A stretch of 64,000 bases of DNA from positions 144,303 through 208,302 of the IMG/VR virus record IMGVR_UViG_3300024239_000011. The stretch is one strand, 5' to 3'. A model generated the notes under the pieces. The model saw nothing but the letters and a program-made list of their open reading frames with translations. It was not told the DNA's origin and searched no databases. This DNA comes from a virus. Positions 3,035 to 50,677 of the stretch are shown here, piece by piece (the first letter of the stretch is position 1; each line of letters starts with the position of its first letter). The translations under genes and the position numbers were made by a program.

Positions 3035-3781
3035 TTATGAATATTGGTATACGCGAATTTTCTTAGTGAGGTCAAGATTATTTATCATTTCATCGGCTAA
3101 TTTTGTTGAAGATAGCCTGTAGTGTGTAGCGTCCTGTTTCACAAATGGATATCCACATGCATACGAGGCGATTTCAAATGCTTTTTGAACCTCAGTATTT
3201 TTCTGCACAAAATGCACATATGTATACCAACCTCCGTTCTTGAAGGTTTTATAAACTCCCCCATCAGTTTCAATCAAACCTTTGAGGAACATTTTAAGGT
3301 ATTCGTCGGCTGAATATATCCAATCAGGGACAACAAATCCGTTTGTATTTTTGTTCCCAACTGGAAGCGCAAGAGAATTTGGCAAATCTATCCCATAAAC
3401 ATAGATTTCAACACAATTCGCATTTTTGTGTTTTCTTTGTTTCGCCGTTTTTCCTGTAATTCTAGTTAATAGCGCCGTATATTCTTCAATAAGATATGGG
3501 TGTGATTGATCACATGATATGAGCAGTTTACAGGATCGTCCAGTTCGCGTCAGACATCCATCACCAGCAAAGACACCCATGAAATACGCCAAATCATTTG
3601 ATCTTTCCATTAAAAGAATTTGTTCTCGTTGTTTCGCTTGACGTTTTATTGTTGGACTTATACTTGGCAAATGACGAATGTGCCATCGCACAGTGGAAGG
3701 TGCTATTCCCAAGTCTTCTGCTATTTTTCGGATACTAAATCCATGCTCACGTAATGTAATACATTTCTTACCGATTTCCAT
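3035..3781 (-). CDS. LAGLIDADG-type homing endonuclease with N-terminal HTH
   Basis: 248 residues. Residues 1-35 form a resolvase-like helix-turn-helix (GFSIRKIAEDLGIAPSTVRWHI). Two LAGLIDADG motifs follow: YFMGVFAGDGCL (about 66-77, catalytic Asp at the end) and FLKGLIETDGGV (about 164-175). Spacing of about 100 residues is typical of single-chain LAGLIDADG enzymes. The gene is free-standing and ends 2 bp before a tRNA-Pro, an arrangement repeated at 11697. Inference: it cuts at or near a tRNA-Pro or neighbouring sequence and spreads by homing. Confidence 0.85.
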   Translation of the reverse strand: MEIGKKCITLREHGFSIRKIAEDLGIAPSTVRWHIRHLPSISPTIKRQAKQREQILLMERSNDLAYFMGVFAGDGCLTRTGRSCKLLISCDQSHPYLIEEYTALLTRITGKTAKQRKHKNANCVEIYVYGIDLPNSLALPVGNKNTNGFVVPDWIYSADEYLKMFLKGLIETDGGVYKTFKNGGWYTYVHFVQKNTEVQKAFEIASYACGYPFVKQDATHYRLSSTKLADEMINNLDLTKKIRVYQYS

Positions 3782-3957: not shown

Positions 3958-4212
3958 ATGAACTACGACGATTTCACTAAAATGGGTACCGAGGTCGAAG
4001 CCGAAGTTGCCGCTGAATACCGTTTCGAGAATGGCACGCCGTTCAAGCCACAATTTGTGGACGATTGTTCGCCTGCCTTGCAAGGTTATTTGCGTAGTAT
4101 GGATGACCCTGAAGTATTCCGATGCGAAACAGACCGTCTTGCCGCCGGGCTGGCGGATTGGATCGATGAGTTGGTTGAGGCGGGACTGATGAAAGCTGGT
4201 TCGGTCGCCTAG
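3958..4212 (+). CDS. hypothetical acidic protein (84 aa)
   Basis: Good ribosome binding site (GAGGGG, 4 bases before the ATG) and a late-promoter-like box upstream. The protein is acidic and helical (EVEAEVAAEYRFENG near the N-terminus, LADWIDELVEAGLM near the C-terminus). No family recognised. Ends just before a strong terminator. Confidence 0.75.
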   Translation: MNYDDFTKMGTEVEAEVAAEYRFENGTPFKPQFVDDCSPALQGYLRSMDDPEVFRCETDRLAAGLADWIDELVEAGLMKAGSVA

Positions 4213-4214
4213 AG

Positions 4215-4249
4215 AAAAACCCCCGGAAGCAATCCTTCCGGGGGTTTTT
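4215..4249. terminator. bidirectional terminator
   Basis: AAAAACCCCCGGAAG/CTTCCGGGGGTTTTT stem with CAATC loop. Confidence 0.85.
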
Positions 4250-7523: not shown

Positions 7524-8045
7524 ATGGAATATTTCTTGGTTTATATGGCTGGGCTGGTAACGACCCCGATATTTGTGGGGCTGATTTTCGTGATAAAAGA
7601 TATATATGACAAGAAACGTGAATATCGGCGCTCGGAGCGCGATAATTACGAGGAATTTCCGGCACTTACGGAACCGAATTTCGATGTGAACACTCTATAT
7701 CCACTCGATGAGGATGATATGGAAGCCGCCTTTACTGCGCTTCCCCGTCCAATCCCATTTGATCCAAAAACATTTGAAGATTTGCGTTTCATTGATGATG
7801 TGGGTATGCAGACGATGCTTCGTCATATCGATAAAGATACGGTTGCAATGGCGCTCAAAGGTGCCAGTAATGCCACCAAGCATAAGTTCTTCGAAAATAT
7901 GTCTAAGCATGCCGGAAAGTATCTTCACTACGATATGCAAACTATGGGACCGTTACGCCTACGTGATGTTGATGACGCGCAGAAAACGATTTTTAAGATA
8001 TACAAAGAATTGTCTTCTGGCGGTCATATCCCCAAAATTGGATGA
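7524..8045 (+). CDS. membrane-anchored FliG C-terminal domain protein
   Basis: 173 residues from the ATG at 7524 (GGAGAGG upstream). Residues about 2-24 form one transmembrane segment (LVYMAGLVTTPIFVGLIFVI), followed by a charged linker. Residues about 82-170 match the C-terminal domain of the flagellar motor switch protein FliG: TFEDLRFIDDVGMQTMLR, then VAMALKGAS, KFFENMSKHAG, MGPLRLRDVDDAQKTIFKI. In FliG this domain carries the torque helix that meets the MotA stator. The FliG N- and middle domains are missing. Inference: a membrane-tethered decoy that acts on the host flagellar motor. Confidence 0.85.
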   Translation: MEYFLVYMAGLVTTPIFVGLIFVIKDIYDKKREYRRSERDNYEEFPALTEPNFDVNTLYPLDEDDMEAAFTALPRPIPFDPKTFEDLRFIDDVGMQTMLRHIDKDTVAMALKGASNATKHKFFENMSKHAGKYLHYDMQTMGPLRLRDVDDAQKTIFKIYKELSSGGHIPKIG

Positions 8046-10053: not shown

Positions 10054-10254
10054 CGCCAGACCGACTCATAGGCACATTACGCATACCGCTCGTTTTGCCG
10101 GGTGGGGAAGGTACTTGCGATGTGGCTGTATTCCTAGGGTGAGAGCAAGCGTCTGACTAAGGGTAGTTCGGGAAGCGATTCAGTAATGGTCAATTGCCGC
10201 CACGTCGTCCCTAATTTGGGTTATCATTACCCGTAAATTACCCATCTTGCTCAT

Positions 10255-10282
10255 GAAACCCCCGGCAATTGCCGGGGGTTTC
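10255..10282. terminator. terminator-like hairpin
   Basis: GAAACCCCCGGCAATTGCCGGGGGTTTC is close to a perfect palindrome with short A- and T-tracts. It separates the 9748 gene from the permuted tRNA-like gene. The 200 bases before it (10054-10254) hold no convincing gene. Confidence 0.7.
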
Positions 10283-10289
10283 ATTTGTA

Positions 10290-10432
10290 TTGACCAGTTA
10301 AGGTGCCGTGATTTGCGTTTTCACGCCTGATCCAATTCAGGTGGCTTTACCATTCGCCCACTTCCCGGTAAATGGTCGGGAAGGGAGGATTCGAACCTCC
10401 AATTTGCTGTAATCACAACGAGTTCTGGTCAA
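10290..10432 (-). ncRNA. circularly permuted tRNA-like gene, copy 1
   Basis: Read on the minus strand, the tRNA 3' half comes first: T-arm GGAGG-TTCGAAT-CCTCC, acceptor 3' strand CTTCCCG and ACCA. After only five bases (TTTAC) the 5' half follows: acceptor 5' strand CGGGAAG, D-arm with GGTAAA, and a CCTGA/TCAGG anticodon arm with a 6-base loop ATTGGA. The ends pair with each other: TTGACCAG with CTGGTCAA, and GTTGTGATT with AATCACGGC (with G-U pairs). A GCGT-GAAA-ACGC hairpin lies after the anticodon arm. So the break is in the variable region and the acceptor end is closed. C1-G72 and A73 look proline-like. See copy 2 at 17947 for covariation. Confidence 0.75.
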
Positions 10433-12783: not shown

Positions 12784-13408
12784 CTATTTCAGCGCCAATC
12801 GCAGCCGATCAACACCGATAGCCCAACCAATACCTTCAGCGTAGCGTCCGCCACCAGCAACCTGTTTCTGGGCACCAAGCGAGGAAACCTCCACCTCGAA
12901 CCCATCTTCGACGTAGTACGTCAGCCCACGTTTCACCGATTCCACGAAGGTGTATTCGACCGGCAACGCATCGAGGCATCGCCGCAACAACTCCGTGACT
13001 TCTTCCGTGTCCGCTGGACCAGACCCGCCGAGCAGTTCGACCCCAAACTGAGTGAACTCGCGGTACCTTCCCGCTTGGGGGCGCTCGTAGCGATAGCACC
13101 GGTTACAATAGAACAGGCGCATCGGCTTTTTAGGCTTGATCTTGCTCCATTGGTCCCGATATAGCTCCTGAACCAAGCCAGTCACTTCCGGGATCAAACA
13201 GACTGGGCGATTGCCCTTATCGTTGAAAGCCCACATCTGGTTTACGATCTCGGGACCAGCCTTATCGATGAAGGTTTGCTGTTCCCAGATTTCCGGAAGA
13301 ATTACTTCCTCGAAACCAGCTTCAGTGAACTACCCTCCGAACAGTATCGATGATCATGCGGTATTGACGAGCGTCATCGCCCATCAGGACTTGTGTGCCT
13401 CGCAACAT
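12784..13408 (-). CDS. compact HisRS-like catalytic core, interrupted by a +1 frame break
   Basis: Two frames join to one class II synthetase core of about 207 residues. The first frame begins MLRGTQVLMGDDARQYR (ATG 13408, AAAGG upstream) and stops at TGA (13322-13324) after ..RRVVH. The +1 frame continues EAGFEEVILPEIWEQ, then motif 2 region CYRYERPQAGRYREFTQFGVE, the HisA block KRGLTYYV, and AGGGRYAEGIGWAIGVDRLRLAL (HisA2 and motif 3). The insertion domain and the C-terminal anticodon-binding domain of normal HisRS (about 420 residues) are absent. The tRNA-His at 13434 lies 26 bp upstream in the same direction. The break has a GGAGGG element before CAC-TGA. It could be programmed frameshifting, a mutation, or a sequencing error. 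Confidence 0.75.
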
Positions 13409-13644: not shown

Positions 13645-13721
13645 TGGTCGGTGTGGAGGGACTTGAACCCCCATGATAACCTGTCCCCGAGACAGGTGGC
13701 TTACCATTGGCCCACACACCG
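13645..13721 (-). tRNA. tRNA-Pro(CGG)
   Basis: Acceptor CGGTGTG/CACACCG, anticodon stem CCTGT/ACAGG with loop CTCGGGG (CGG), T-loop TTCAAGT, A73, CCA encoded. Confidence 0.92.
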
Positions 13722-16543: not shown

Positions 16544-16620
16544 TGGTCGGGGATGTGAGAATCGAACTCACTTGATATCCTGCTCCCAAAGCAGGCGGCT
16601 CGCCTTTAGCCCAATCCCCG
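16544..16620 (-). tRNA. tRNA-Pro(TGG)
   Basis: Acceptor CGGGGAT/ATCCCCG, anticodon stem CCTGC/GCAGG with loop TTTGGGA (TGG), T-loop TTCGATT, A73, CCA encoded. Confidence 0.92.
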
Positions 16621-17801: not shown

Positions 17802-17859
17802 ATAAAACTTTGTTGATGCGCATTTATTCGCGCATCCTATCTAGAAAAATTTCCCCTTT

Positions 17860-17942
17860 TTCGGCACTGTACCAAGGATTCAAACCTCAGTTACCCCAAT
17901 CGCCAGGACTGGTGATGCTTCAATCTCTCTAAGATGCCAAGG
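17860..17942 (-). pseudogene. unassigned tRNA-like remnant
   Basis: Minus strand shows a T-arm-like TGAGG-TTTGAAT-CCTTG (C56 is lost) and short outer pairings (GGCA/TGCC), but no convincing acceptor stem or anticodon loop. Confidence 0.3.
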
Positions 17943-17946
17943 GGAT

Positions 17947-18085
17947 TTGACCAGTTAAGGTGTTGTGATTTGCGTTTTCACGCCTGATCCCAATTCAGGT
18001 GGCTTTACCATTCGCCCATATTCCAATGCTGGAATAGTCGGATTCGAACCGACAATTTGCTGTAATCACAACGAGTTCTGGTCAA
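17947..18085 (-). ncRNA. circularly permuted tRNA-like gene, copy 2
   Basis: Same order as 10290: 3' half first (T-arm GTCGG-TTCGAAT-CCGAC, acceptor TATTCCA, G73), then a 4-base loop GCAT, then the 5' half (acceptor TGGAATA, D-arm GGC..GGTAAA..GCC, anticodon stem CCTGA/TCAGG with 7-base loop ATTGGGA, anticodon TGG). Outer pairings TTGACCAG/CTGGTCAA and GTTGTGATT/AATCACAAC, and hairpin GCGT-GAAA-ACGC, are kept. Compared with copy 1, acceptor and T-stem sequences differ completely yet stay fully paired, which is strong evidence for selection on the fold. No CCA is encoded; U1-A72 and G73 look Gln-like while the anticodon is Pro. Confidence 0.78.
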
Positions 18086-22291: not shown

Positions 22292-22984
22292 TTAATCTAC
22301 ATACCGGGCGGGGAATACCTTCGCCCACTTATCCGGGTCGTAAAATTCCCCCGCAATGGATGCCTCGAACATTTCCATCCGAACCTTCAGCATTTCTGCT
22401 GTCGGCATCGGCGGAAATAACGAGATCGGTTTGAGATCGGTCCATTTAGCCCGTCCACGCCCTTGGCGGCATGAAACCGCATATTCGTTCGTCCCATCCC
22501 GACGTTGGATGCGGTTGATCTGATAGATGGTCGTAAACGGGTTGTCTTCTGGCTCAAAAGAGAACAATTTTGACTCGACAACCTTCCGGAGGCTTTCAGG
22601 CATCAGGAGGACACTACCCGCCACATTTTCCCAATACTCACCCACCGGGGAGATCACGCACAAATGTTGCTTCTTGAACCAGTAGGACCGTGCCTTGGCT
22701 TGGGAAGCTGGATCATTCTTCTTGAACATCGCGGCGACAATGTTCTGAACGTGGTCATTTTCAAACCCGTAAGTCCGCAAACTCGGGATCGCTACTCGCA
22801 CATCACGCTTTTCGATGTCTTTGAAAGGTAGATCGAAAAACATGTATTGTTGCCAGATTTCCGCATTGGAGAACTGCCGAATAGTGAACTCCATGTTTTC
22901 ACCTTCCGGAAACTCCGCGAGACGAATCAGCCACTCGAAAGTGGATGGATCATAGGGGTTTGGGGAGTTGATCCATGTTTTCAT
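22292..22984 (-). CDS. hypothetical protein (230 aa)
   Basis: ATG overlaps the stop of AspRS (ATGA), so it is co-translated with it. Mixed composition with WINSPNPYDPSTFEWLIRLAEF near the N-terminus and a basic middle (QGRGRAKWTDLKPI). No family recognised; coupling to AspRS suggests a translation-related or simply late co-expressed role. Confidence 0.75.
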   Translation of the reverse strand: MKTWINSPNPYDPSTFEWLIRLAEFPEGENMEFTIRQFSNAEIWQQYMFFDLPFKDIEKRDVRVAIPSLRTYGFENDHVQNIVAAMFKKNDPASQAKARSYWFKKQHLCVISPVGEYWENVAGSVLLMPESLRKVVESKLFSFEPEDNPFTTIYQINRIQRRDGTNEYAVSCRQGRGRAKWTDLKPISLFPPMPTAEMLKVRMEMFEASIAGEFYDPDKWAKVFPARYVD

Positions 22985-24849
22985 TTCGCGGTCACCTTGA
23001 TGTGAAGTTCCTTCAACTGTTCCGGGGTGACTTCAGAGGGTGCGCCCATCATCAAGTCCTGCGCCGAGTTGTTCATCGGGAACGCCACGATCTCGCGGAT
23101 GTTCGGCTCATTCGCCAACAACATCACCATGCGGTCGATACCAGGGGCGATACCACCGTGCGGTGGTGCGCCGTAGCGGAAAGCATTGTAGAGCGCCGGG
23201 AATTTAGTCTGAACCACTGCCGGGTCATACCCAGCAATCTCAAACGCCTTCTCCATCACGTCGATGCGGTGGTTACGGATGGCGCCCGACGACAGTTCCA
23301 CGCCGTTGCACACCAAGTCGTATTGATGTGCTTTGATGGTCAGCGGGTCTTGGTTCAACAACGCATCCATCCCACCCTGCGGCATCGAGAACGGGTTGTG
23401 GCTGAATTCGACCTTGCCCGTTTCCTCGTTCAATTCGAACATGGGGAAATCCACGATCCAGCAGAACTGGAAGGATTCCTCATCGTAGTTGTCCGACCGC
23501 TTGGCAGCTTCGACACGCAGCTTGCTTGCCCACTGATACGCCTCTTTCTTCGGACCAGCAATGAACATATATGATGCATCCGGTTTTTCAAATTGAGCGC
23601 ATGTAGTTTCATCCATGAAATCCACGGCGATGGACCACATCTGCTCGTCGGTGAAAAACTTTTCCATCGGACCAGAAACGCCGGTCAGCACATGCGGCTC
23701 CGTGCGCGCGTGCGACAACGATTCTTTCCAATCTGTGATCTTGAAGTAGCCAAGACCGGGCATACCCAAATCCTTGGCATAGTTATCCATGTCCTTGTGC
23801 CATTTACCCGTCAGCTTTCCAGCGTCGGCATATACCGGGATGCACAACACAACACCGTTCTTATCGATGACTTCCTGAAGGAACGGTGGCGCATTCGGTG
23901 CAACAACCTCCGTAACATCACGGATATAGATGTTGTCGTCCACACGCAGATCGGGTTTGTCGTTACCAAACAATTGGATAGAAGCATCATAGGTGTAGGT
24001 TCGCCATTCCGGGTTGACGTACCAGTTGGATGTGGGTCCGCAATAACTGACTGAGGTGAATTCCTCGAACACCCGCGATACTACATCCTTGACAACGCCG
24101 AACACCTCTTCTTGGGTAGCAAATGCCATTTCCATGTCAAGCTGGTAGAACTCACCCGGCGACCGGTCAGAACGCCCAGCTTCATCGCGGAAGCACGGGG
24201 CAATCTGAAAGTACCGCTGCACCCCTGAACACATCAGAATTTGCTTGAAAATCTGCGGAGCCTGGGGCAGCGCGTAGAATTTACCGGGATGCAAACGGGC
24301 AGGCACCAAATAATCACGGGCGCCTTCCGGACTAGAAGCCGTCAGAATGGGCGTCTGAATTTCCATGAAGTCCTGGCGTACCATTTCGTTGCGCAGCATC
24401 CAAATCACGTCGGAACGCAGTTTGAGGTTCTGCTGCATTTTCGGGCGGCGAAGATCGAGGTACCGATACCGCAGGCGAGCTTCGTCCGATGCAGTGAAAT
24501 CTTCATCGTGCAGCGTGAACGGAAGTACCGCCGCCTGATTGAAGATTTCAAACTCTTCCACGACCAGTTCATATTTGCCAACGAACCCGAGTTTTTCGTT
24601 GGTAGTGCCTTCCGGGCGCAGACGCGGCGTTCCGCGAACTTCCACACAGCTTTCTTCACGAATCTTTGCCAGGGCGGCAATGTTCGGGTTGTTGGCATCA
24701 AGCGCACACTGCATTACGCCATCGTAGTCACGGATGTCCACGAACAACAACCCGCCGTGGTCGCGCACTCGGTGAACCCAACCGCGTAAGGCAACCTTCT
24801 GTCCAACTGAACATGAACCGGGTGAACCAATCGGATAGACGATGTACAT
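22981..24849 (-). CDS. aspS: aspartyl-tRNA synthetase
   Basis: 622 residues, full bacterial length. N-terminal OB-fold anticodon domain (GWVHRVRDHGGLLFVDIRDYDGVMQ, about 24-48), motif 1 region (FMEIQTPILTASSPEGARDYLVP), motif 2 (CFRDEAGRSDRSPGEFYQLDME), the bacterial GAD insertion in the middle, and motif 3 (GIAPGIDRMVMLLANEPNIREIVAFP). All catalytic motifs are intact, so the enzyme is probably active. GAAGG precedes the ATG. No tRNA-Asp or tRNA-Asn gene is in this window, so it must serve host tRNA or a gene elsewhere. Confidence 0.95.
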   Translation of the reverse strand: MYIVYPIGSPGSCSVGQKVALRGWVHRVRDHGGLLFVDIRDYDGVMQCALDANNPNIAALAKIREESCVEVRGTPRLRPEGTTNEKLGFVGKYELVVEEFEIFNQAAVLPFTLHDEDFTASDEARLRYRYLDLRRPKMQQNLKLRSDVIWMLRNEMVRQDFMEIQTPILTASSPEGARDYLVPARLHPGKFYALPQAPQIFKQILMCSGVQRYFQIAPCFRDEAGRSDRSPGEFYQLDMEMAFATQEEVFGVVKDVVSRVFEEFTSVSYCGPTSNWYVNPEWRTYTYDASIQLFGNDKPDLRVDDNIYIRDVTEVVAPNAPPFLQEVIDKNGVVLCIPVYADAGKLTGKWHKDMDNYAKDLGMPGLGYFKITDWKESLSHARTEPHVLTGVSGPMEKFFTDEQMWSIAVDFMDETTCAQFEKPDASYMFIAGPKKEAYQWASKLRVEAAKRSDNYDEESFQFCWIVDFPMFELNEETGKVEFSHNPFSMPQGGMDALLNQDPLTIKAHQYDLVCNGVELSSGAIRNHRIDVMEKAFEIAGYDPAVVQTKFPALYNAFRYGAPPHGGIAPGIDRMVMLLANEPNIREIVAFPMNNSAQDLMMGAPSEVTPEQLKELHIKVTAK

Positions 24850-35119: not shown

Positions 35120-36274
35120 TCAGCGACTTATTTGAATGAAGGTTTTAATTCGCGGGGCTACAAGGTCGCGGAACCGTTTTCCGTTGAAAATGCCATAATG
35201 TCCCACACCTTCAACCATGTAATGGTCACGGTACGGAACATTCGGGCACAAATCGTGTGCTGCCATAGTCTGTCCAACCCCCGTAATATCGTCCTTCTCG
35301 CCCTCAATTGTCATGAGGCAAGTCTTTGAAATCATTGATGGTTTTATCAGTTGATCATGACAGACCATCGTCCCCTGTGGTAACTGATGTTCTTGGAATA
35401 CCATCTTGATGGTTTCCAAATAGAACTTCGCATCCAAGTCCATTACAGCAAGGTATTCATCATAGAATTTCTCATGATGGGCGGCGCTCTCACCATCACC
35501 GCTGACCAAATTATCAAAATATTCGCGATGTGCTTTTACATGCCGATCAAGGTTCATTGACATAAATCCAGCAAGTTGGAGAAAGCCAGGATATACCCTG
35601 CGTCCATGTCCTTTCTTTCCCATCGAAACTGGGTAAATTAAATTCTGTTCAAACCATGAATATGGGCGTGTTGTTGCCAGTTCATCGACTTCAGTTGGGT
35701 TAATACGTGTATCAATTGGTCCACCCATAAGGGTCATGGATTTAGGGGTTGGTTCATCGTTCGCCGCGAGAAGCGACACGGCTGCTATCACCGGTACGGA
35801 AGGCTGACATACTGCAACGAGGTGGACATTCCCGTTGAAGTATCGAATGAAGTCCATTAGGTACGTGACATAATCATCGAACCCAAAAACACCATCCTCA
35901 AGAGGAACTGCCCCCGCATCTCGCCAATCAGTGATGTAGACATTGTGATCCGGAAGGAACTCCTTCACTGTTCCCCGCAATAATGTTGCGTAATGCCCAG
36001 ACATAGGAGCTACCACAAGCACATTAGGACGCCCCGCGTCCACCTCTGCAAACTGCAAAAGGTCACAGAACGGTTTAGTCAGAACATCCGTCTCCGCGAC
36101 CCCCAAATCGAATTCCGGGCGGGTATAACTGTTCGTGGAACGTTGGACCAGTTTGTTTAGGGCGTACCATTCACGGGCAAAGGGAACCGATTGTGCCAAA
36201 TTGGCATTCACCGTTGCTGCAAAATTTACATGAGAACGAATAACGTTGCTTATAGAATAAAAATTATAGAGCAT
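35120..36274 (-). CDS. phaZ: intracellular poly(3-hydroxybutyrate) depolymerase
   Basis: 384 residues, near the length of Ralstonia-type PhaZ (about 420). Alpha/beta-hydrolase with the catalytic Cys box VCQPSVP (about 140), strand NVLVVAPMSGHYATLLRGTV, the block VYITDWRDAGAVPLEDGVFGFDDYV that is diagnostic of the intracellular PHB depolymerase family, the acid in EGEKDDITG (about 329) and the His in VEGVGHYGIFNG (about 362). It should cleave host PHB granules into 3-hydroxybutyrate, providing carbon and reducing power for phage growth. That use is inference. Confidence 0.92.
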   Translation of the reverse strand: MLYNFYSISNVIRSHVNFAATVNANLAQSVPFAREWYALNKLVQRSTNSYTRPEFDLGVAETDVLTKPFCDLLQFAEVDAGRPNVLVVAPMSGHYATLLRGTVKEFLPDHNVYITDWRDAGAVPLEDGVFGFDDYVTYLMDFIRYFNGNVHLVAVCQPSVPVIAAVSLLAANDEPTPKSMTLMGGPIDTRINPTEVDELATTRPYSWFEQNLIYPVSMGKKGHGRRVYPGFLQLAGFMSMNLDRHVKAHREYFDNLVSGDGESAAHHEKFYDEYLAVMDLDAKFYLETIKMVFQEHQLPQGTMVCHDQLIKPSMISKTCLMTIEGEKDDITGVGQTMAAHDLCPNVPYRDHYMVEGVGHYGIFNGKRFRDLVAPRIKTFIQISR

Positions 36275-47570: not shown

Positions 47571-48746
47571 TCAAGCCGTGAGCGACTTGATCCCGGCAGA
47601 GGTATCTCCACAGGCGGTGACGCCGCTAGGCGTCGGTTCGGGCATTCCTTGCCCTACCAAATATTCAAATCCCCAACGCTTGATGTTCAAAGACGCATTC
47701 GCGTCTCTGTCCATGACCAAACCGCAATTGGGGCAGTTGTAGGTTCGCTGGTTCAGCGGCATTTTCTGCCGATGATCACAGCAAGAACAGACCTGACTAC
47801 TGGGATCAAAGCGGTCAATTTGGACGAAATGCTTTCCCTGCCAGACCGCCTTGTAGGTGAACTGGCGTAGAATTTCGCCCCAACTGGCGTCGGCTATCGC
47901 CTTCGCCAAATTGTGGTTTCGCATCAATCCTTTGATGTTCAGGTTTTCGGCACAAATCACGCTGTAGGTCTTGGTTATCGAACTGGTGAATTTGTGGATC
48001 AGGTCGGCTCTCTGATTTCGCACCTTGCGGTGTTGGCGGTAGAGCCGTAATTGGCATTTCTTTCGGTTCTGGCTGTCCTTACGAGCTTTGCTCAGACGGC
48101 GTTGCAAGCGGCGTAGCCGCTTCTGTGCCTTCCGCAGATGACGGGGATTGGCGACCACCTCGCCGTCACTGGTCACGACCAGTTCCTTCAGACCGAGGTC
48201 AATACCCACTGTGCTGTCCAAATCGGGAGCGATTGGCTGGTCGGGTATGTCAATCTCACAGACCACACTAATGTACCAATTATTGCCGTCTTGGCTCACC
48301 GTGGCGGATAACGGACGCCCCTCGGGCAGCCGTCCAGCACGGAACCGCATCGATTCCATCTTTGGTAAATGGACGACATGATCACCAATGGCGAAGGATT
48401 GGTTGGTCAAATAGAACGAATCACGTAAATTCGATTTCTTCTTGAACCGAGGGAAGCCCTTGCCGCCCTTGAAACATGCCTTCAAGGCACCATCAAGGTT
48501 TCTGGCGACCCGTTGAAGTGAACAAGCTGGTGCCGCCCCGAGCCAATCCGTCTCATTCTTCATCAACGGCAACATCTTTGCCATGTCTGCGTAAAAGAAG
48601 AATTTTTTCTCAGCCGCGTAGCGGTCTTGGTTCAGGTGGAGCAGATGGTTCCACAGCCAACGGCAATTGCCACCAAATTGCTTGAGTTGTTCGGTCTGGT
48701 TGCGAGTTGGATAAAGTCGTAGTTTGAATGCTTTCTGTGTTTTCAT
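47571..48746 (-). CDS. tnpB: TnpB RNA-guided nuclease (IS200/IS605-type)
   Basis: 391 residues, typical length. N-terminal OrfB_IS605 helix-turn-helix start (KLRLYPTRNQTEQLKQFGGNCRWLWNHLL), RuvC-I Asp in VGIDLGLKELVVT (about 190), RuvC-II Glu in VICAENLNIKGLMRN (about 275), zinc finger CSCC ... CPNC (about 327-346) and RuvC-III Asp in DRDANASLNI (about 352). All catalytic residues are present, so it is likely an active guide-RNA-dependent nuclease. Its reRNA (omega RNA) would overlap the 3' end of the gene and the element end near 47500-47640; this was not verified. No tnpA nearby. Confidence 0.93.
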   Translation of the reverse strand: MKTQKAFKLRLYPTRNQTEQLKQFGGNCRWLWNHLLHLNQDRYAAEKKFFFYADMAKMLPLMKNETDWLGAAPACSLQRVARNLDGALKACFKGGKGFPRFKKKSNLRDSFYLTNQSFAIGDHVVHLPKMESMRFRAGRLPEGRPLSATVSQDGNNWYISVVCEIDIPDQPIAPDLDSTVGIDLGLKELVVTSDGEVVANPRHLRKAQKRLRRLQRRLSKARKDSQNRKKCQLRLYRQHRKVRNQRADLIHKFTSSITKTYSVICAENLNIKGLMRNHNLAKAIADASWGEILRQFTYKAVWQGKHFVQIDRFDPSSQVCSCCDHRQKMPLNQRTYNCPNCGLVMDRDANASLNIKRWGFEYLVGQGMPEPTPSGVTACGDTSAGIKSLTA

Positions 48747-49459: not shown

Positions 49460-50677
49460 ATGACCTACATCACCAGTGACGAATTCCACGCCATCATTAC
49501 CCCTGCGACGGTTCGTATCAGCAAGCTGTTTGAGCAAGCTGGGTTCGACATCCGTATCGTCGGTGGAGCCGTGCGTGATTCGCTGCTCCGAGTGATGCCA
49601 AAGGATGTGGACTTCGCGACCAACGCGACCCCCGAAGAAATGATTCGGTTGATGGTTGCCGCTGATCTGTACGTGATCGGCGTCACGGAGTCCCTGCGGC
49701 GTGGTAAGACTCTGAATGAAATCATCGCGCGTATCGATGATATTCCGGGTATCCAGCATGGCACCGTGAGTGCGGTCATCAATGGTGAAACCTTCGAAAT
49801 CACCACGCTGCGATATGACATGGAAACGACCGGTCGGCATGCTAAAGTGGCATTTCATCGGTCGTTCCCGGAAGATGCCAAGCGTCGTGATTTCCGGTTC
49901 AATGCCATGTACGCCAGCATGGACGGGGAACTGCACGACTACGTTGGCGGTAAAGACGATCTCGACCAACAAGTTGTCCGGTTCGTTGGCGCCCCATCGC
50001 AGCGCATTAGAGAAGACTACCTGCGCATCTTGCGGTACTTCCGTTTTGCGGCGCGATTGGGGTTCTCCTTCGATGACGCGGCTGACGCGGCAATCGCATA
50101 CAACGTTGCGGGTCTGACGACCATCAGCGGCGAGCGCATCTGGGCGGAAATGTCCAAACTGTTCATGTATCGTGACCCGGTGAAATACCTGTTGCACATG
50201 CATGCTCTGGGTGTAACCGAGGCAATCCAGTTGCCGGTGGATATGGATCAGGTGCGGGTGGTGTCCGAGTTCGCTACGTCGCCCGTGTCGGTACTGGCGG
50301 CATCGCTGCGTTCGGTTAGCGAGGTCGATACCCTGGCTGCCAGATGGAAGCTGAGCGGCGTTGAACGCAACTTGGCAGCATTCTTGGTGCAATATCGTGA
50401 CGACCGGGTTGGGTTGCGGACTGCCCAGGATATGGTGGTCGATGGTGCCAACCACGACTTCGTTGCTGAACTACTGCGGGTCGGTGGACGTGTTGCCGAA
50501 GCGGATACGTTGGTTGGTTGGGTAACCCCCAAGTTCCCGGTTTCCGGCGCCGATCTGATGGCTTTGGGTATGAAACAAGGCAAAGAACTGGGTGATGCCT
50601 TGAAAAGCATGAAAGAACGCTGGAAACGCAGCGACTTTCAACTGTCCAAGGACGAACTGATGGCTGGCGGGGTTTAA
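49460..50677 (+). CDS. cca: CCA-adding tRNA nucleotidyltransferase
   Basis: 405 residues. Class II head domain: FDIRIVGGAVRDSLLRVMPKDVDFATNATPEEM (about 29-61, with GGxVRD and the DxD metal pair), FEITTLRYDMETTGRHAKVAF, the RRDFRFNAM motif (about 141-149), and the neck block RIREDYLRILRYFRFAARLGF. It adds or repairs the CCA end of tRNAs. Most array tRNAs encode CCA, but the permuted tRNA-like copy 2 does not, so the enzyme may serve repair and such transcripts. Own promoter and terminator. Confidence 0.95.
   Translation: MTYITSDEFHAIITPATVRISKLFEQAGFDIRIVGGAVRDSLLRVMPKDVDFATNATPEEMIRLMVAADLYVIGVTESLRRGKTLNEIIARIDDIPGIQHGTVSAVINGETFEITTLRYDMETTGRHAKVAFHRSFPEDAKRRDFRFNAMYASMDGELHDYVGGKDDLDQQVVRFVGAPSQRIREDYLRILRYFRFAARLGFSFDDAADAAIAYNVAGLTTISGERIWAEMSKLFMYRDPVKYLLHMHALGVTEAIQLPVDMDQVRVVSEFATSPVSVLAASLRSVSEVDTLAARWKLSGVERNLAAFLVQYRDDRVGLRTAQDMVVDGANHDFVAELLRVGGRVAEADTLVGWVTPKFPVSGADLMALGMKQGKELGDALKSMKERWKRSDFQLSKDELMAGGV

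What the first reader, a model, noticed from the sequence alone, without database searches (positions are those of the whole stretch)
17947..18085. Circularly permuted tRNA-like genes in a phage, supported by covariation between two copies
On the minus strand the tRNA 3' half (T-arm, acceptor 3' strand) precedes the 5' half (acceptor 5' strand, D-arm, anticodon arm) with only a 4-base loop between the acceptor strands. A second copy (10290-10432) has the same order. Acceptor and T-stem sequences differ completely between copies, but every pair is kept, while D-arm, anticodon stem, outer stems and a GAAA-capped hairpin are conserved. The new ends lie in the variable region and are zipped by TTGACCAG/CTGGTCAA and a 9-bp stem. 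Permuted tRNA genes are known from some algae and an archaeon; I know of no phage case, but that is memory, not a search. It may be matured into a tRNA, or stay closed and act as a tRNA mimic.
Basis: partly seen in the sequence, partly recalled or inferred. Interest (0 to 1): 0.92.

Follow-up and report, generated by a model that had tools for sequence, protein, structure and literature searches.

The report
Phage Y-RNA-like permuted tRNA mimics
A giant bacterial virus carries two copies of a small RNA gene that folds into a complete transfer RNA with its two halves swapped and zipped shut by a long stem; it most resembles the known tRNA-imitating 'Y RNAs' of bacteria and phages rather than a new kind of tRNA gene, but it keeps the anticodon arm that textbook Y RNAs lack.

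Summary
Both copies fold unaided into a closed permuted cloverleaf: T-arm, acceptor, D-arm, anticodon arm, GAAA hairpin, all inside a two-part terminal stem (z -4.2 and -4.6). Six pairs differ on both sides between the copies and all 40 are kept.

The interpretation needs revising. A search using only generic T-loop and D-loop spacing found the same arrangement in unrelated phage contigs. Rfam's YrlA model (bacterial Y RNA, the Ro60 partner) recognises many of these, and several sit beside Ro-like genes. They share a signature with our copies: the inner stem followed directly by (A)CAGCAA. Our basal stem (8 bp, 5/7 internal loop, 9 bp) also matches the YrlA consensus plan (6 bp, 5/8, 7 bp). 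So the best reading is a Y-RNA-like tRNA mimic that stays closed.

Two things stand out. Our copies keep a full anticodon arm, with the stem in the variable region; one other phage, L268, shares this order. And no Ro60-like gene was found in the 543 kb record, although its nearest cultured relatives encode one. Membership in the Ro60-Y RNA system is therefore unproven.

The parts
17947..18085 (-). copy A, whole Y-RNA-like permuted tRNA mimic
10290..10432 (-). copy B, whole Y-RNA-like permuted tRNA mimic
18078..18085 (-). copy A outer basal stem, 5' strand TTGACCAG (3' strand CTGGTCAA at 17947-17954)
18064..18072 (-). copy A inner basal stem P1, 5' strand GTTGTGATT (3' strand AATCACAAC at 17962-17970); the 5/7 internal loop AACTC/ACCTTAA lies between the outer and inner stems
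18054..18063 (-). copy A ACAGCAAATT, the signature shared with phage Y RNAs beside Ro-like genes
18037..18053 (-). copy A T-arm GTCGG TTCGAAT CCGAC
18019..18036 (-). copy A acceptor hairpin TATTCCA GCAT TGGAATA
18001..18016 (-). copy A D-arm GGC GAATGGTAAA GCC
17983..17999 (-). copy A anticodon arm CCTGA ATTGGGA TCAGG (UGG, U33, G37)
17973..17982 (-). copy A GAAA-capped hairpin CGTGAAAACG
10411..10419 (-). copy B inner basal stem P1, 5' strand (3' strand AATCACGGC at 10305-10313)
10401..10410 (-). copy B ACAGCAAATT
10361..10383 (-). copy B acceptor hairpin CTTCCCG ACCATTTAC CGGGAAG (C1:G72, A73 and CCA)
10326..10341 (-). copy B anticodon arm with a 6-base loop, CCTGA ATTGGA TCAGG
10253..10284 (-). 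14-bp GC-rich hairpin just downstream of copy B; terminator-like only when read on the + strand
13645..13721 (-). ordinary tRNA-Pro(cgg) whose 5' half most resembles that of the mimics
49460..50677 (+). tRNA nucleotidyltransferase (CCA-adding type) of the same phage

Best explanation
The two genes most likely encode Y-RNA-like tRNA mimics: closed, stable RNAs in which a complete tRNA-Pro-like cloverleaf, opened in its variable region and joined through a short loop at the acceptor end, sits on a two-part basal stem. Shown by sequence: the fold, the permuted order, the (A)CAGCAA signature after the inner stem shared with phage Y RNAs, and the basal plan shared with Rfam YrlA. Inferred: the basal stem is the handle for a Ro60/Rsr-like protein, which the host must supply because none was found in the phage record; and the tRNA-like head is bound and modified by tRNA-recognising proteins (for YrlA, TruB and DusA; for the D. 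radiodurans Y RNA, PNPase). The head may also compete with real tRNAs for tRNA-cleaving enzymes during infection. The acceptor hairpin is probably never opened, so the RNA does not decode.
For: Unaided fold and energy and preserved pairing. The same order was found in other phages by a search that used neither our sequence nor the signature. RF02553 YrlA matches such units at 25-44 bits, including a full-length match beside the Ro-like gene of mycobacteriophage JoeDirt. Inner stem + (A)CAGCAA is present in Ro-linked units: L126/L216, L217, L222/L225, L227, L200, JH2 and JoeDirt; the chance of CAGCAA in a 4-position slot is about 0.002 in this window. AC-less units L239/L254/L276 have ACAGCAAATT shortly before the T-arm, as ours do. 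L268 has the same order as ours, including the anticodon arm 3' of the D-arm. The nearest cultured relatives (tail sheath 46-49% identity), Phosso and Atu_ph07, encode TROVE/Ro60 proteins. Our phage encodes RtcB, two RNA_ligase proteins, a CCA enzyme and about 65 tRNAs, a tRNA-repair setting like that described for jumbo phages (PMC7824862).
Against: No Ro60, TROVE, DUF2828 or vWA_Ro60 protein was found in the record (with positive controls, 102). RF02553 scores copy B at only 12.1 bits and does not list copy A at E<=10, although Ro-linked phage units also fall below its 69-bit threshold. Published YrlA has D, T and acceptor arms without an anticodon arm (PMC8394870). The 'CTGTTAA'-type motif after the 3' strand of the inner stem, typical of many other phage units, is ACCTTAA here. 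No expression data.
Confidence: 0.7

Rival explanations
1. A true permuted tRNA gene: the ends, zipped together by the stems, are ligated by a phage RNA ligase or RtcB, and the acceptor loop is removed by RNase P and 3' processing, giving a tRNA-Pro(UGG) with a long variable arm.
For: All arms are canonical: the re-joined halves of copy A are called tRNA-Pro(tgg). Copy B encodes A73 and CCA with C1:G72. RtcB, RNA ligases and a CCA enzyme are encoded.
Against: Copy B's anticodon loop has 6 bases and its re-joined form gets no anticodon call. Copy A has a 4-base loop without CCA. There is no bulge-helix-bulge motif in the fold. The phage already has ordinary tRNA-Pro(tgg) genes at 16544, 17017 and 2957. 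Related phage units with acceptor loops of 3-6 bases look closed. The ARAGORN test is lenient: 9 of 20 control joins of neighbouring tRNAs are also called.
Confidence: 0.12
2. A two-piece tRNA: RNase P and 3' trimming open the acceptor loop, CCA is added, and the two halves stay together through the variable-region stem, as in two-piece tmRNA; no ligase is needed.
For: Geometry: the inner 9-bp stem plus T and acceptor pairing would hold the halves; CCA is encoded in copy B; two-piece tmRNA is a precedent (PMC3978253).
Against: The same decoding problems as above. tmRNA models score far below threshold (11.7-16.7 bits). The shared Y-RNA signature is left unexplained.
Confidence: 0.07
3. A decayed, non-functional by-product of recombination between tandem tRNA genes.
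For: The tRNA region is dense with duplicated and degenerate tRNAs.
Against: 40 of 40 pairs are kept in both copies with six two-sided differences. The energy is far below shuffles. The basal stems and the signature have no counterpart in ordinary tRNAs but recur in other phages.
Confidence: 0.06

Closest known systems
YrlA, bacterial Y RNA (Rfam RF02553; Salmonella YrlA, PDB 6CU1 as cited in PMC8394870)
   Same: T-arm, acceptor and D-arm in permuted order with a closed acceptor; terminal outer stem, asymmetric internal loop and inner stem; size 90-150 nt.
   Different: Ours keeps a complete anticodon arm plus a GAAA hairpin, has its closing stem in the variable region rather than in place of the anticodon arm, scores 12 bits against a threshold of 69, and has no Ro60 gene in the record.
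Phage Y RNAs beside Ro-like genes (DUF2828/DUF7788 or TROVE), e.g. JoeDirt, JH2 and contigs L216, L225, L227
   Same: Inner stem followed by (A)CAGCAA; permuted cloverleaf; several keep a full anticodon arm.
   Different: In those the anticodon arm lies 5' of the T-arm (break between D-arm and anticodon arm); many have CTGTTAA or CTGATAA after the stem.
Unit in L268(-) 3282-3409, IMG/VR contig of 181.8 kb
   Same: Stem + ACAGCAA, T-arm, acceptor, D-arm, then anticodon arm (GUA): the same permutation point as ours.
   Different: Tyr-type anticodon; a different small hairpin, placed before the T-arm; no outer stem was looked for.
Circularly permuted tRNA genes of algae and one archaeon
   Same: 3' half precedes 5' half.
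   Different: Those are matured through a bulge-helix-bulge splice and a circular intermediate (PMC3978253); no such motif here.
Permuted (two-piece) tmRNA
   Same: Permuted order with T-arm and acceptor first.
   Different: Ours has D and anticodon arms and no tag-reading region; model scores are far below threshold.

Membership tests
YrlA / bacterial Y RNA | tRNA-like head with T, acceptor and D arms in permuted order, acceptor closed by a loop | tested here: met
YrlA / bacterial Y RNA | Terminal basal stem: outer helix, asymmetric internal loop, inner helix | tested here: met
   8 bp, 5/7 loop, 9 bp against 6 bp, 5/8, 7 bp in the RF02553 consensus; compared by inspection
YrlA / bacterial Y RNA | Scores above the RF02553 curated threshold (69 bits) | tested here: not met
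   12.1 bits for copy B, not listed for copy A; Ro-linked phage units score 32-44 and also fail
YrlA / bacterial Y RNA | Ro60/Rsr-like protein encoded in the same genome | tested here: not met
   (controls ring); the host is unknown and could supply one; relatives Phosso and Atu_ph07 have it
YrlA / bacterial Y RNA | Binds Ro60/Rsr and an effector such as PNPase | not testable with these tools
   needs binding experiments
Phage Y RNAs beside Ro-like genes | Inner stem directly followed by (A)CAGCAA | tested here: met
Phage Y RNAs beside Ro-like genes | CTGTTAA/CTGATAA after the 3' strand of the inner stem | tested here: not met
   ACCTTAA in both copies
Circularly permuted tRNA gene (algal/archaeal type) | Bulge-helix-bulge motif at the joined ends | tested here: not met
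   the fold has an 8-bp stem, a 5/7 internal loop and a 9-bp stem
Circularly permuted tRNA gene (algal/archaeal type) | Mature aminoacylated tRNA via a circular intermediate | not testable with these tools
   needs RNA sequencing and acid gels
Permuted tmRNA (RF04321) | Model score over threshold, tag region | tested here: not met
   11.7 and 15.3 bits against 47

The most novel reading that the evidence does not exclude
Some phages have Y-RNA-type scaffolds that carry a whole tRNA including its anticodon arm, at several permutation points, and use them without a phage Ro60 as decoys or competitive inhibitors for host anticodon nucleases. Wolin and colleagues proposed competitive inhibition of the anticodon nuclease for the anticodon-less YrlA (PMC7790460). 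In our phage they would act alongside its own RtcB, RNA ligases and CCA enzyme.
Probability: 0.2. Interest if true: 0.78.

Novelty: new variant of a known kind. Interest (0 to 1): 0.55.

Why it matters
It places a puzzling 'permuted tRNA' in the Y RNA world and shows that phage Y-RNA-like molecules are more varied than the published description: some keep a complete anticodon arm, the closing stem can sit at different points of the cloverleaf, and they can occur in records without a recognisable Ro60. That makes a concrete question testable: is the anticodon loop there to engage tRNA-cutting defence enzymes or tRNA-binding partners? It also warns that tRNA finders (ARAGORN) and Rfam's YrlA threshold both miss these genes.

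Tried and rejected
Exact-sequence scans of IMG/VR with our own D-arm/anticodon segment found nothing. BLAST of the whole element against phages and plasmids found only short T-arm or tRNA matches. Model R1 in 33 tail-sheath relatives gave only weak matches of 11-22 bits (not examined one by one), and in Phosso, Atu_ph07 and other records matches that read as tandem ordinary tRNAs where I looked. A genome-collection scan with ACAGCAAATT before a T-arm gave 4 hits, none with the fold. A new self-cleaving ribozyme or permuted intron was considered when the repeated CAGCAA...CTGATAA units appeared and dropped once YrlA matched. A two-piece tRNA was my first hypothesis and is kept as a rival. Resemblance of ACCTTAACTGG to the 3' Ro60-site strand of vertebrate Y RNAs is from memory and was not used. 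PF05731 alone proved unsuitable for finding phage Ro-like proteins: it missed DUF2828-type ones, so the negative was repeated with profiles that ring on controls. A joint model with L268 was not built because the MAFFT alignment was poor. Phosso's intergenic gaps near its Ro gene showed no obvious Y RNA.

Full report
Check of the observation. Folded alone, each copy gives the same minimum-energy and centroid structure: an outer stem of 8-9 bp, an internal loop, a 9-bp inner stem, then T-arm, 7-bp acceptor hairpin, D-arm, anticodon arm and a GAAA hairpin. Energies are -47.9 and -52.7 kcal/mol, z -4.23 and -4.58, with no shuffle as good. The usual tRNA tertiary positions are present by reading: U8, A14, A15, G18-G19, A21, TTCGAAT in the T-loop, U48. 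All 40 pairs form in both copies; 4 acceptor pairs and 2 T-stem pairs differ on both sides. The sequences therefore do not 'differ completely', and since the changed block is contiguous in the permuted order, one replacement could explain it. These are the only two copies in the 543,035-base IMG/VR record. ARAGORN and Rfam at gathering level do not report them.

Origin of the head. The 5' half (TGGGCGAATGGTAAAGCCACCTG...) is closest to the ordinary tRNA-Pro(cgg) at 13645-13721. Copy A has a 7-base anticodon loop with UGG and G37; copy B has lost one base. Copy B has C1:G72, A73 and an encoded CCA, as in bacterial tRNA-Pro; copy A has U1:A72 and GCA, as at the end of the phage's tRNA-Gln. Putting the halves back in order, ARAGORN calls copy A tRNA-Pro(tgg) and copy B a tRNA with no readable anticodon; this test is lenient, since 9 of 20 joins of neighbouring tRNAs are also called. 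A structure kept while the anticodon loop is broken in one copy argues for a mimic rather than a decoder.

Relatives. Exact scans with our sequence found nothing in IMG/VR or in annotated phages. A scan using only generic tRNA motifs at a spacing too short for most tandem tRNAs, followed by a pairing test, turned up permuted cloverleaves in unrelated contigs, notably L200 and L197. Their units share a plan: an inner stem, then ACAGCAA, a tRNA in permuted order, and the stem's 3' strand followed by CTGATAA or CTGTTAA. Further units occur in L126, L114 and L189. Rfam at a relaxed threshold names them YrlA, the bacterial Y RNA. L126, L200 and L189 encode neighbouring proteins related to phage 'Ro-like RNA binding protein' genes. 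By Pfam these are DUF2828/DUF7788, whereas those of Phosso and Atu_ph07 are TROVE with a Ro60 vWA domain. Known phage loci fit too: mycobacteriophage JoeDirt has a full-length YrlA match with CAGCAA directly after its Ro-like gene, and JH2 has such a unit as well.

Where ours fits. The (A)CAGCAA element after the inner stem is shared. CAGCAA falls in a 4-position slot with a chance of about 0.002 in this window, and the longer TTACAGCAAATT is identical to L200. The outer stem, 5/7 internal loop and inner stem match the YrlA consensus plan of 6 bp, 5/8 loop, 7 bp. Published YrlA has D, T and acceptor arms but no anticodon arm (PMC8394870). Among phage units I found three layouts: no anticodon arm (L239, L254, L276); a full anticodon arm 5' of the T-arm, so the break lies between D-arm and anticodon arm (L216, L225, L227, L197, L200, and L217 with 4 pairs); and, in our two copies and L268, a full anticodon arm 3' of the D-arm, so the break lies in the variable region. 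Ours therefore looks like a variant of a known kind.

The missing partner. No Ro60-like protein was found in the 543 kb record with PF05731, a profile of seven phage Ro-like proteins, the Phosso protein, the Ro60 vWA model, or a local profile of 12 diverse phage proteins that rings on control loci. The nearest cultured phages, Sinorhizobium phage Phosso and Agrobacterium phage Atu_ph07, do encode one, close to the tail sheath gene. The record may be incomplete, the gene may be lost, or the host may supply it. I therefore do not file the RNA as a proven member of the Ro60-Y RNA system; I say it is built like a Y RNA.

How it most likely works. From the anatomy, the head is a tRNA look-alike whose acceptor is sealed and the basal stem is a handle. 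In bacteria the handle binds Rsr; the head is modified by DusA and TruB and, in D. radiodurans, tethers PNPase (PMC8394870). For this phage these steps are inferred. The surroundings suggest tRNA protection: about 65 tRNA genes, RtcB, two RNA ligases and a CCA enzyme. Jumbo phages are known to combine such repair enzymes, and a small subset carry a TROVE protein that in cells works with a tRNA-like partner (PMC7824862). Competitive inhibition of an anticodon nuclease has been suggested for YrlA (PMC7790460); an anticodon-bearing version would suit that role, but this is untested.

Verdict. Real, conserved in pattern and interesting, but largely explained by a known class. The remaining novelty is the retained anticodon arm, the choice of permutation point and the absence of a Ro60 gene in the record.

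Noticed in passing
L216:1614-1733, L217:33-151, L222:2374-2491/L225:5794-5912, L222:2218-2353, L227:4789-4905, L197(-)3434-3550, L200(-)7752-7879 (offsets on the stated strand): All seven anticodon-like loops of phage Y RNAs with the break between D-arm and anticodon arm end in UAA (CTTCTAA, ATGCTAA, CTTGTAA, CTCATAA, CTGATAA, CTTTTAA, ATCATAA), i.e. U36-A37-A38 as in tRNAs for ANN codons. Could reflect t6A-type recognition or common descent.
   Followed up: partly
L200(-)7560-8000; L126(-)1600-2400; L197(-)3230-3560 and 4150-4230 (offsets on the - strand): Arrays of several Y-RNA-like units in one phage, some with no tRNA inside, only a hairpin, but the same stem-CAGCAA...CTGWTAA frame.
   Followed up: partly
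G000:C1:14487-16685 (outside the window): RtcB in one 803-aa open frame whose match is split by about 300 residues, suggesting an intein.
   Followed up: no
window 35120-36274: Protein with a strong PHB depolymerase C-terminal domain (E 7e-88), unusual for a phage and a hint at a PHB-storing host.
   Followed up: no
window 12784-13236 and 22981-24849: A short histidyl-tRNA-synthetase-like protein (150 aa) among the tRNA genes, and what looks by eye like a full aspartyl-tRNA synthetase.
   Followed up: no
window 17840-17946(-): A degenerate tRNA-like stretch between copy A and tRNA-His that ARAGORN does not call; it can pair TTGGCAT with GTGCCGA and has a T-arm-like GAGGTTTGAATCCTT.
   Followed up: no
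G000:C1 about 77,000-165,000: Some 60 widely spaced tRNA genes with many duplicates; Pro, Leu, Gln, His and Ser cluster around 123-163 kb, other types mostly at 77-106 kb.
   Followed up: no
window 47571-48746: OrfB_IS605/TnpB-like protein with a Cas12f1-like domain; no guide RNA was looked for.
   Followed up: no
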